In this document: positions 18,836 through 21,738 of the stretch, piece by piece
Position numbering within the stretch: the stretch's first letter is position 1
How the letters are laid out: each line of letters opens with the position of its first letter
From: Methylacidiphilum caldifontis
GTDB taxonomy: Bacteria > Verrucomicrobiota > Verrucomicrobiia > Methylacidiphilales > Methylacidiphilaceae
NCBI RefSeq assembly: GCF_017310505.1
Contig: NZ_CP065957.1
Location: 1,364,001 to 1,428,000 of the forward strand
Direction: 5' to 3'
Length of the DNA: 64,000 nucleotides
Made by a program: the position numbers and the translations under genes
The notes under the pieces: model-generated
Seen by the model: only the letters and a program-made list of their open reading frames with translations
What the model was told of the DNA's origin: nothing
Databases searched by the model: none

Positions 18836-19762
18836 ATGGGTATAGATGAAAAAAAAGAGAGGGTATTGAAACTTAAAAAAGAAAAAAATGCCCTTATTTT
18901 AGCTCATAATTATCAAGAAGCCGAGATCCAAGATATAGCTGATTATGTTGGGGACTCATTAGGGTTATCATTTAAGGCCAGAGAGGCTACGCAAGAAAGA
19001 ATTGTGTTTTGCGGCGTTCATTTTATGGCTGAAACTGCAAAAATCCTAAATCCTAACAGAAAGGTCCTTTTACCCGATCTGGAAGCGGGTTGTTCCCTGT
19101 CAGATTCCTGCAGTTATGAAGAGCTTCTTGAGTACAAAAGAAAAAATCCTGACACTTTCATCGTCACCTATGTAAATACTTCTGCAGCTGTAAAATCATT
19201 AAGTGATTGTATCTGTACTTCTGCCAATGCCCTAAAGATTGTACAAAAAGTTCCCTTGGACAGAAATATTCTTTTTGTACCTGATCAAAACTTAGGGGAG
19301 TGGGTACAAACTAAGACGGGAAGACAAATGGATTTATGGCCTGGTGAATGCTATGTTCATGTGGAGTTTACTTATCAATCTTTGCTGGAATTAAAAAACA
19401 AGTTTCCTGATGCTCCCATTGTTTCCCATCCTGAATGTGAAAGGGCGGTAAGAATGTTTTCGGATGTAGTCTGTTCAACCGAACAGATGATCGGATATTG
19501 TAAGGATCATCCTGCTCAGACATTTATAATCGTTACTGAGGCGGGAATGATAACCCGACTTAAAAGAGAAATTCCAAACAAAGAATTTATTCCAGCGACA
19601 ACAGCTAGGTGTGCTTGTGCCCAGTGCAAATTTATGAAAAAAATTACACTGGATAAGGTTATTTATTCCCTTGAATCTGATCAATATGAAATTGAGGTTC
19701 CACTTGAGATCTGCAAGAAGGCATTTATTCCTATTCAACAAATGTTAGAATGGAGTGTGTAA
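18836..19762 (+). CDS. nadA: Quinolinate synthase A
   Basis: NadA condenses iminoaspartate with dihydroxyacetone phosphate to quinolinate, the second step of de novo NAD synthesis, using a [4Fe-4S] cluster. Three conserved cysteine positions that hold the cluster are visible: C86 in DLEAGCSLSDSC, C172 in WPGECYVH, and one in the CACAQCKFM block near 259-264. The opening LAHNYQEAEIQDIADYVGDSLGLS is the family hallmark. At 308 aa it is the compact type found in thermophiles. NadB and NadC are not in the window. It begins 18 bases after lspA. Confidence 0.95.
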   Translation: MGIDEKKERVLKLKKEKNALILAHNYQEAEIQDIADYVGDSLGLSFKAREATQERIVFCGVHFMAETAKILNPNRKVLLPDLEAGCSLSDSCSYEELLEYKRKNPDTFIVTYVNTSAAVKSLSDCICTSANALKIVQKVPLDRNILFVPDQNLGEWVQTKTGRQMDLWPGECYVHVEFTYQSLLELKNKFPDAPIVSHPECERAVRMFSDVVCSTEQMIGYCKDHPAQTFIIVTEAGMITRLKREIPNKEFIPATTARCACAQCKFMKKITLDKVIYSLESDQYEIEVPLEICKKAFIPIQQMLEWSV

Positions 19763-19790
19763 AAGTAGCCGTTATGTAGTTTTTTAGAAT

Positions 19791-20399
19791 GTGAGAAAAT
19801 TTGTTTTAGATACGAGCGTTTTTACTAATCCAGATATATCTCAGCAATTTGGAGATGATGATAGTACCGTATTAAGTGGCTTTCTTTCTTTAGCATCCCA
19901 AGCAGATGCTCATTTCTATATGCCCTTGTCCGCTTATAAGGAACTTAAACAGATAAAAGGATCTGTTTTTTTTTCTGCTGATTTTGAATCAATTGTACAT
20001 ATCCGGTCACCAAGGAAATTTACACTTCTGATCCCTGGCTCTGTTCTTTATGATTTTATCGATGAAATAAGAAAAAGAATCGATCATGGATTAAGAATTG
20101 CTGAAGAACATCTAAAACTTGCTGGACCAAACGGAGAAAATCCAATTCCTTTTGATCAACTGGTAAATCGACTAAGAAATCGTTACCGTGAAGCTTTAAG
20201 GCAAGGCATATTAGATAGCAGGGAAGATGTTGATGTCATTCTTCTTGCTTACGAACTTGAAGCTGTTCTTGTAACTGCGGATGAAGGTATGAAAAAATGG
20301 GCTGATAAAATGGGCGTAGAAATATTAAACGCAAGTTATTTAAGAGACTGCTTGAAAAAACTAATCAAACCTGAGGGCTCCGGAGAGCCAGTTCCTTAA
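19791..20399 (+). CDS. RNA ligase partner protein (PIN-domain family, MJ_0950-like)
   Basis: The protein begins with a PIN-type nuclease pattern, [12 protein letters not shown] (D7 expected to bind metal). It ends with a second acidic cluster ([40 protein letters not shown]), the other half of a PIN active site. The whole layout, including [23 protein letters not shown] and [15 protein letters not shown], fits the family that in archaea and some thermophilic bacteria accompanies the Pab1020-type RNA ligase. Here the ligase gene is indeed the next gene, but in convergent orientation with a 39-base overlap of the coding ends. The GTG start at 19791 is used. Its biochemical role is unknown; RNA end processing before ligation is a reasonable inference. 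Confidence 0.85.
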
Positions 20400-21464
20400 A
20401 GAATCCCCTGTTGAAGGGTATATTTTTTCAAATTCTAAAATCCAGTACTCTTTATCTTTAAAAAAACCTTTTACTACGATGTGTTCTTCATGTCTAGGAA
20501 TATGCTTAAGATGATCGATGAAATGCTGAGCATTTTGAGGATTTCTGAATCGACAACGAAAGAGTCGGCTTGATTTGCCATTTTCTTTAAGGTAGTTTAA
20601 AACTTCTTTGATTGAAGATACGAAAGCCTTTCCTAATTTCTCCTCCCATCCGTTTTCTTCGATAATTCCCATATCGATCAAGAATAGAACATATCTTAAA
20701 ATTCTATCGATAAAATAGTTAGGACTAATATCCATGATCTTGCGAGAAAAAACAGCAATATCGTTTAAATCGGAATTAGCTGTCACATATTTTGCACGAC
20801 GTCCTGAAGGTTCTTCTTTGAATACCACTCCTTCTCTATATTCGTAATGGAGATTAAGGAGGATCTTTTTTATTTTCTCAAAATCTTCTTGCCGATTCTC
20901 AAATAGACCGAAGTTCTTGACTGAAGGAAGACCATAGCGATAAAGAAGCTCTTGTTTTTGTTGTTGAGGTAAAAACTCGAAGGTAGGCAGCTTAGCAATA
21001 TCGAAAATAAAAAGTTTTATATCTTCGTCCACTAATGGAGATGGTCCTTCAATATAGGGGTTTTCTGGACCTGTGATTTCTCCACATAAAACAAGTGTGG
21101 GATAGTCATTGAAAATGTCTGCTGACATAAGATCCATGATTCTATCCGTACTAAATGGACAGATAAAACCACCCCGAGTAGCACATAATATCTTCCCTTG
21201 ATAGTGGAAAATCCTAACGTTGTATCCGTCAACTTTTTCTTCCATCCAGAAAGAACAAGAAGCAAACTGTTTTTTAAGTCCAGACACAAGAGCGTTTATC
21301 CTCCCTATCTTAGGAAAGCCAGATACCGCTAAATCTTTAAGAAAAACCGTTCCTTCTGGCCATCCTCCATAAGCATGAGTCAACCTGAGATAAGTATGTT
21401 CCCAGAATTTTCCTAATACCCCTTTTTTTGAACGAAGAATTTCTTCGAAAAGCTCTTCATACAT
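20361..21464 (-). CDS. ATP-dependent RNA ligase, Pab1020 (Rnl3) family
   Basis: The ligase nucleotidylation motif KxDG is at K77 in [14 protein letters not shown]. Motif III-like [12 protein letters not shown], motif [10 protein letters not shown] and the motif V lysine in RRAKYVT are all present. The remainder is the C-terminal region of the archaeal homodimeric RNA ligase group typified by Pyrococcus abyssi Pab1020. These enzymes seal or circularise RNA in vitro. The RNA repair ligases Rnl1 and Rnl2 differ in the flanking domains. At 367 aa it is close to the family length. It overlaps the tail of the PIN partner gene and has no other neighbour on its strand. The family's rarity in bacteria suggests acquisition from a thermophilic archaeon or bacterium. 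Confidence 0.88.
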
Positions 21465-21738
21465 AAAAAATCATAAATATAGCTATTTGATTTTTAAAGA
21501 TAGAGCAAAGCCAAGAAGCTAAGAAAATAGAAAACTTTAATTGCAAAATCAAATGAGCATGAAAAATTTTAAAAGATTAAAATTGCAAGATTTTTAAAAA
21601 TAACTATATCGTTTTTTTGTTTTGTCCTCTACAAAAGATCAGAAAGTTTATCAAAAACCCATAAAGGTTTGTTCATTAAAGGAAACCTTAATATTTTAAG
21701 CAATTTGCCTTAAATAACTGTTATCGTATTGAAAAAAT

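What the first reader, a model, noticed from the sequence alone, without database searches (positions are those of the whole stretch)
19791..21464. RNA ligase (Pab1020/Rnl3) and its PIN 'partner' encoded tail to tail in a bacterium
The ligase keeps all nucleotidyltransferase motifs (KVDG with K77, [15 protein letters not shown]). The neighbour has a PIN-type layout with acidic residues near both ends. In archaea the two families are neighbours, but their joint task is not known. A nuclease that prepares ends plus a ligase that seals or circularises would be a compact RNA repair, processing or circular-RNA system. Here the genes are convergent with a 39-base overlap, so the pair is not simply an operon; antisense coupling is possible.
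Basis: partly seen in the sequence, partly recalled or inferred. Interest (0 to 1): 0.65.

Follow-up and report, generated by a model that had tools for sequence, protein, structure and literature searches.

The report
HARP nuclease–RNA ligase convergent gene pair
A Methylacidiphilum-type bacterium carries, tail to tail, a protein-only RNase P-like nuclease (HARP) and an RNA-sealing enzyme (Rnl3); the partnership was reported in 2025, but this lineage has it family-wide, with an overlap shared across several phyla and no obvious tRNA or guide-RNA job.

Summary
19791-20399(+) encodes a 202-aa PIN nuclease and 20361-21464(-) a 367-aa Rnl3/Pab1020 RNA ligase; they are convergent and overlap by 39 bp. 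The PIN protein is HARP, the protein-only RNase P ("RNA ligase partner", TIGR03875), not VapC. All known catalytic and most tRNA-binding residues of HARP, and the ligase nucleotidyltransferase motifs, are intact.

The pair is not new: Seshadri & Gopalan (mBio 2025) reported HARP-Rnl3 co-occurrence and linkage. Added here: the pair is in all 13 Methylacidiphilaceae genomes searched and in no other genome of a 288-genome phylum sample. In 70/70 distinct bacterial loci with a nearby ligase it is convergent. 37 of 39 overlaps are codon-aligned, with shared anatomy in several phyla, so the junction is probably one ancient unit. Two haloarchaeal plasmids have the pair head to head.

This genome also has RNP RNase P (RNA and RnpA) and no fibrillarin, and the M. 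infernorum HARP is reported inactive on pre-tRNA. So neither housekeeping tRNA processing nor C/D-box maturation fits well here. Best guess: HARP makes 5'-P/3'-OH ends on an unidentified structured RNA and Rnl3 reseals or circularises it.

The parts
19791..20399 (+). HARP (homolog of Aquifex RNase P; TIGR03875/PF08745 PIN_5), 202 aa, GTG start 28 bp after nadA; catalytic D7, D142, D146, D164; RNA-binding/catalytic arginines R94, R102, R129, R133, R137
20361..21464 (-). Rnl3/Pab1020-type ATP-dependent RNA ligase (TIGR01209; PF09414 + PF18330), 367 aa; motif I E75-E76-K77-V-D79-G80, EGVVFK 211-216, RAKYVT 223-228
20361..20399 (.). 39-bp codon-aligned convergent overlap: ligase C-terminus ...[10 protein letters not shown] is antisense to HARP C-terminus ...[12 protein letters not shown]; the ligase stop codon (TAG on its own strand) is the complement of a HARP Leu codon (CTA)
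18836..19762 (+). nadA (quinolinate synthase), co-directional neighbour upstream of HARP; adjacent in all five Methylacidiphilum genomes sampled, so HARP probably sits at the end of this transcription unit
21465..21738 (.). 274-bp intergenic region between the divergent ligase and UDP-glucose dehydrogenase genes; presumed to hold the ligase promoter; only weak promoter-like matches (3 found, 7.6 expected in the scanned region)

Best explanation
The two genes encode an ancient RNA-processing pair. HARP, a homo-oligomeric PIN metallonuclease, cuts a structured RNA at a helix end and leaves 3'-OH and 5'-phosphate ends. The homodimeric Rnl3 ligase adenylates the 5'-phosphate with ATP and seals it to a 3'-OH held nearby, giving a circular or a rejoined RNA. 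Shown here: both proteins belong to their families with catalytic residues intact and under purifying selection; they are linked in all 13 family members searched; the convergent layout and, in most overlapping loci, the codon-aligned overlap are conserved over several phyla; the ligase stays in the genome in most cases even where linkage is not seen. Inferred from family knowledge: the end chemistry and the ligation step. Inferred and weakest: that both act on the same RNA, and what that RNA is. In this organism it is unlikely to be bulk pre-tRNA (RNP RNase P is encoded, and the M. infernorum HARP is reported not to cleave pre-tRNA) or C/D-box sRNA (no fibrillarin). A tRNA-like or stem-closed small RNA, or broken rRNA/tRNA, is the best guess.
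For: Family matches. Catalytic Asp D7/D142/D146/D164 (Aq880 D7/D138/D142/D161) and R94, R129, R133, R137 are invariant in 88/88 HARPs, R102 in 86/88; ligase motif residues conserved. dN/dS 0.04-0.20 for both genes (NG86, some dS saturated). HARP in 13/13 and ligase in 13/13 Methylacidiphilaceae, none in other genomes of the order tested, and no HARP elsewhere in a 288-genome sample of the phylum. 70/70 distinct bacterial loci with a nearby ligase are convergent; 37/39 overlaps are codon-aligned. Of 17 HARP loci without an adjacent ligase, 14 genomes hold a full-score ligase elsewhere. Trees of both proteins place Methylacidiphilaceae as one group beside Ectothiorhodospiraceae. In two archaeal plasmids the pair is divergent instead, so linkage is not only one inherited layout. 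Rnl3 circularises RNAs with closed terminal stems in archaea (PMC9014305). RNP RNase P RNA and RnpA present, fibrillarin absent above cut-off. M. infernorum HARP reported inactive on pre-tRNA (PMC12153264 citing Gossringer 2023).
Against: No shared substrate, complex or co-expression has been shown here or in the papers read. T. kodakarensis loses C/D-box circles but not growth without Rnl3 (PMC9014305), and HARP knock-outs in two archaea had no phenotype (PMC12153264). H. volcanii has HARP but no Rnl3, so HARP does not always need the ligase. A single ancestral junction carried along could account for the bacterial linkage without functional coupling. HARP in Aquificota acts as ordinary RNase P, yet those genomes keep the ligase too.
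Confidence: 0.5

Rival explanations
1. HARP is a spare pre-tRNA 5'-processing enzyme backing up RNP RNase P, and the ligase does independent RNA repair; the two are kept together only because both suit harsh, hot or saline habitats.
For: HARP keeps the known pre-tRNA-binding arginines. In Aquificota HARP occurs with no detectable RNase P RNA (0/27 genomes), so it is presumably the RNase P there. The authors of PMC12153264 keep this possibility open.
Against: M. infernorum HARP failed to cleave pre-tRNA (reported in PMC12153264). RNP RNase P RNA and RnpA are present here. Tight linkage in two layouts and retention of the ligase when unlinked are more than expected for independent genes.
Confidence: 0.22
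2. Neutral linkage: a single ancestral event joined the tails of the two genes; the codon-aligned overlap makes separation costly, so linkage persists and travels by horizontal transfer without joint function.
For: The overlap phase is the same and the ligase FD-stop is antisense to the HARP tail in the Verrucomicrobiota, Aquificota, Methylocaldum, Tectomicrobia and Spirochaetia loci inspected. Trees are broadly congruent.
Against: 31 of 70 linked loci have no overlap yet stay convergent and mostly close; 14 of 17 genomes without an adjacent ligase still keep a full-score one; two haloarchaeal plasmids have a divergent layout.
Confidence: 0.13
3. Toxin-antitoxin-like pair: HARP cuts RNA under stress and the ligase reverses or restrains it.
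For: HARP is a PIN-domain nuclease; adjacent genes; idea raised in PMC12153264.
Against: The ligase is a conserved enzyme with an intact active site, not a small labile antitoxin; genes are convergent rather than co-transcribed; the pair is fixed across the whole family instead of patchy; HARP occurs without ligase in H. volcanii; ligase knock-out in T. kodakarensis was not lethal (PMC9014305).
Confidence: 0.07
4. HARP matures, and Rnl3 circularises, C/D-box guide RNAs (published archaeal hypothesis).
For: Rnl3 is needed for C/D-box circularisation in T. kodakarensis (PMC9014305); hypothesis stated in PMC12153264.
Against: No fibrillarin over cut-off in this genome; four weak hits (19-22 bits against a cut-off of 27) fit generic methyltransferases. 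C/D guide machinery is otherwise archaeal/eukaryotic. It cannot be the general explanation for bacteria.
Confidence: 0.03

Closest known systems
HARP-Rnl3 gene pairs of Aquificota, Ectothiorhodospiraceae and Methylococcales (Seshadri & Gopalan 2025, PMC12153264)
   Same: Same two families, adjacent, on opposite strands; HARP about 50-60% identical outside the family; codon-aligned overlap in several groups.
   Different: Verrucomicrobiota lineage that encodes both RNP RNase P and HARP; overlap 39 bp in Methylacidiphilum (27-30 in Aquificota, 42 in Methylocaldum, none in Thioalkalivibrio).
Aquifex aeolicus HARP (Aq880) and Halorhodospira halophila Hhal2243
   Same: All four active-site aspartates and the key arginines; about 51-54% identity.
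   Different: Aq880 is the sole RNase P of its host and active on pre-tRNA; the M. infernorum HARP and the H. halophila one are reported inactive on pre-tRNA (PMC12153264).
Pyrococcus abyssi Pab1020 / Thermococcus kodakarensis TK1545 Rnl3
   Same: Nucleotidyltransferase motifs plus Lig_C (PF18330) domain; E 1.6e-62 to PAB1020.
   Different: Archaeal ligases circularise C/D-box sRNAs, which this bacterium is not expected to have.

Membership tests
HARP (TIGR03875 / PF08745 PIN_5) | Full-length match above curated cut-off | tested here: met
   204.2 bits vs cut-off 95.3; PF08745 201.1 vs 27
HARP (TIGR03875 / PF08745 PIN_5) | Catalytic aspartates (Aq880 D7, D138, D142, D161) | tested here: met
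   D7, D142, D146, D164 invariant in 88/88 (residues from PMC8266387)
HARP (TIGR03875 / PF08745 PIN_5) | Arginines needed for pre-tRNA cleavage (Aq880 R125, R129; PbHARP R108, R116, R146) | tested here: met
   R129, R133 (by alignment to Aq880) and R94, R102, R137 (by spacing from PbHARP numbering, not by direct alignment) present (PMC8266387, PMC9051087)
HARP (TIGR03875 / PF08745 PIN_5) | Pre-tRNA 5' cleavage activity | not testable with these tools
   Reported negative for the M. infernorum HARP (PMC12153264, citing Gossringer 2023, which was not held)
Rnl3 / Pab1020 RNA ligase (TIGR01209) | Full-length match above cut-off, with ligase core plus Lig_C domain | tested here: met
   309.2 vs 136.9 bits; PF09414 72-227, PF18330 243-362
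Rnl3 / Pab1020 RNA ligase (TIGR01209) | Nucleotidyltransferase motifs intact | tested here: met
   EEK77VDGYN, E129xxGP, FD155, EGVVFK, K225 conserved
Rnl3 / Pab1020 RNA ligase (TIGR01209) | RNA circularisation/ligation activity, homodimer | not testable with these tools
   Shown in the literature for archaeal members only
VapBC toxin-antitoxin | PIN protein matches VapC families; small antitoxin gene upstream | tested here: not met
   Best families are HARP/PIN_5; only VapC-named PDB hit E 0.54; the upstream gene is nadA, 28 bp away

The most novel reading that the evidence does not exclude
HARP and Rnl3 form a dedicated bacterial RNA cut-and-circularise (or cut-and-rejoin) system with a substrate class that is neither pre-tRNA nor C/D-box RNA, ancestral to the bacterial HARPs and later co-opted as sole RNase P in Aquificota.
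Probability: 0.25. Interest if true: 0.85.

Novelty: new member of a known kind. Interest (0 to 1): 0.4.

Why it matters
Why some bacteria keep a protein-only RNase P beside the ribonucleoprotein enzyme is an open question. Methylacidiphilaceae give a clean case: both RNase P types, no sign of C/D-box guide machinery, a HARP whose M. infernorum version is reported inactive on pre-tRNA although no known catalytic residue is missing in this genus, and an invariably linked RNA ligase. That narrows the search to a non-tRNA, non-C/D substrate, and circRNA-seq plus 5'-end mapping would test it directly.

Tried and rejected
1) VapC toxin reading: rejected by family and PDB matches. 2) Xenologous replacement of the ligase: a first survey seemed to show 74% identity of the window ligase to Aquificota ligases; this came from taking the better of two query sequences (the second was PDB 3qwu), and the tree shows no replacement. 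3) A conserved third partner gene: a first clustering was confounded by antisense ORFs; a cleaner one found only sigma-54 activators beside the pair in some Aquificota and Thioalkalivibrio, with different sensor domains (REC vs PAS), so probably chance neighbours. 4) Sigma-54 promoter pattern in the window: no excess over chance (232 vs 219 expected). 5) Promoter/terminator scan of the junction: nothing above chance. 6) HARP in viral contigs: none found. 7) CCA-encoding of tRNAs: about 14 of 30 tRNAs examined appear to encode CCA (approximate ends), so no clear statement about HARP substrate preference.

Full report
WHAT IS THERE. They converge and overlap by 39 bases counting both stop codons. 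The first matches TIGR03875 'RNA ligase partner protein' (204 bits, cut-off 95), NF003344 and PF08745 PIN_5. The second matches TIGR01209 (309 bits, cut-off 137), PF09414 RNA_ligase and PF18330 Lig_C, the Pab1020 C-terminal domain. By sequence the nearest solved structures are seven 'RNA-free ribonuclease P' chains (E 1e-38 to 9e-64) for the PIN protein, and 3qwu (5.6e-85), the 8uce-8ucg chains and PAB1020 2vug (1.6e-62) for the ligase. So the 'partner' is HARP, the homolog of Aquifex RNase P.

ORGANISM. The same-genus genome G001 has a 74,068-base contig carrying the pair, the same length and layout as the Methylacidiphilum sp. Yel contig found by name. G002 is 2,287,145 bases, the size I remember for M. 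infernorum V4 (memory, not tested). The window is therefore Methylacidiphilum or very near it. HARP stands 28 bp behind nadA in a run of + strand genes (a 371-aa gene that looks like dnaN from its sequence, an unassigned ORF, lspA, nadA). nadA is adjacent in all five Methylacidiphilum genomes sampled. The ligase starts 274 bp from the divergent UDP-glucose dehydrogenase gene.

ACTIVE SITES. In an alignment of 88 HARPs the four catalytic aspartates (window D7, D142, D146, D164 = Aq880 D7, D138, D142, D161) and R94, R129, R133, R137 are invariant; R102 is kept in 86. Functional roles of these residues are from PMC8266387 and PMC9051087; the correspondence of R94, R102 and R137 to PbHARP residues is by spacing, not by a direct alignment. 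Ligase motif residues K77, E129, D155, E211, K216 and K225 are conserved. Both genes evolve under purifying selection in the Methylacidiphilaceae (dN/dS 0.04-0.20, NG86, some dS saturated).

DISTRIBUTION. HARP occurs in 13 of 13 Methylacidiphilaceae genomes and in none of 27 others of the order; in 288 genomes across the phylum only members of this family have it. The ligase is in the same 13 and in none of eight other genomes of the order tested. In the family the pair is always convergent and overlapping: 39 bp in 5/5 Methylacidiphilum, 54 bp in 7/7 of a second genus, 42 bp in the third.

ACROSS BACTERIA. I surveyed 87 distinct HARP loci, from an 80-locus fetch plus the family genomes. In 70 a ligase lies in the locus, and in all 70 the genes are convergent. 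39 overlap; 37 of the overlaps are multiples of three (15 to 54) and two are 4 bases. In the 12 loci printed, the 10 codon-aligned overlaps have the same anatomy: the ligase's last residues and stop (FD*) are antisense to HARP's L-I/V-K/E, or S-V-K/E in the two shortest, so the ligase stop codon is read as a residue near the HARP C-terminus. They come from Verrucomicrobiota, Aquificota, Methylocaldum, other gammaproteobacteria, Tectomicrobia and Spirochaetia. I take this as one homologous ancestral junction. Of the 17 loci without an adjacent ligase, 14 genomes hold a full-score ligase elsewhere, one a fragment, two none; several of these contigs end near HARP, so some may be adjacent across a break. 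I did not find this overlap described in the papers read, but the supplementary tables of PMC12153264 were not open to me.

PHYLOGENY. Quick maximum-likelihood trees place Methylacidiphilaceae in one group in both proteins, next to Ectothiorhodospiraceae (ligase 98* for the family; HARP 86, with a weak deeper join). With HARP absent elsewhere in the phylum sample this fits a single gain of the pair by transfer into the family's ancestor. Long branches make the exact donor unsafe.

ARCHAEA. In two haloarchaeal plasmids (Halocatena, Natrinema) the pair is head to head, with 98 and 121 bp between the genes. Linkage therefore exists in two layouts, which argues for a functional tie. Only two archaeal examples were read.

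WHAT ELSE THE CELL HAS. This genome has RNase P RNA, RnpA, RtcB and 46 tRNA genes; fibrillarin has no hit over its cut-off. Over 50 HARP genomes, RNase P RNA was found in 0 of 27 Aquificota-type and 22 of 23 others (stricter filters). The ligase is in 48 of 50 (47 over cut-off). [quoted passage not shown]

PRIOR WORK. Seshadri & Gopalan 2025 (PMC12153264) reported Rnl3 in 89% of HARP genomes, linked in 80% of bacterial cases and 'typically bidirectional', and proposed C/D-box maturation, 5'-adenylate handling or a toxin-antitoxin role. They cite Gossringer 2023 for four bacterial HARPs, including M. infernorum, that did not cleave pre-tRNA. I could not open that paper. Archaeal Rnl3 is required for C/D-box circularisation and prefers closed terminal stems (PMC9014305).

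MECHANISM. My best reading is a cut-and-seal pair: HARP makes 5'-phosphate/3'-OH ends and Rnl3 joins such ends. The chemistry follows from the families; the shared substrate is inference. In this lineage bulk pre-tRNA and C/D RNAs are poor candidates. I put 0.5 on this reading, 0.22 on independent functions with HARP as spare RNase P, 0.13 on inherited linkage without joint function, 0.07 on a toxin-antitoxin-like role and 0.03 on C/D RNAs.

VERDICT. This is a new family-wide instance, with an overlap junction shared between phyla and a useful set of exclusions.

Noticed in passing
window 18836-19791: nadA lies 28 bp upstream of HARP on the same strand, and is adjacent in all five Methylacidiphilum genomes sampled; HARP is probably read from the upstream transcription unit, unlike the ligase.
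   Followed up: partly
L077:4565-5935 and other Aquificota loci; L092:7879-9222 and other Thioalkalivibrio loci: A sigma-54 activator (REC type) is divergent from HARP in many Aquificota, and a different one (PAS type) stands just upstream of the ligase in some Thioalkalivibrio. Sigma-54 activators also control RtcBA elsewhere (from memory), so this may be worth a look.
   Followed up: partly
G000:C1:1652609-1653904 (L143): The same genome also encodes RtcB, so it has ligases for both kinds of RNA ends (5'-OH and 5'-phosphate).
   Followed up: no
L144:1766-3666; L145:1725-3663: In two haloarchaeal megaplasmids the ligase and HARP genes are head to head with about 100-120 bp between them, opposite to the bacterial layout.
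   Followed up: partly
L106: A contig titled Acidobacteria bacterium J001 has HARP and ligase that fall with Aquificota in both trees and no RNase P RNA detected in its genome; likely a mislabelled bin or a transfer.
   Followed up: no
L063, L081: In two gammaproteobacterial bins the convergent pair is separated by 839 and 1070 bases; what lies between was not examined.
   Followed up: no
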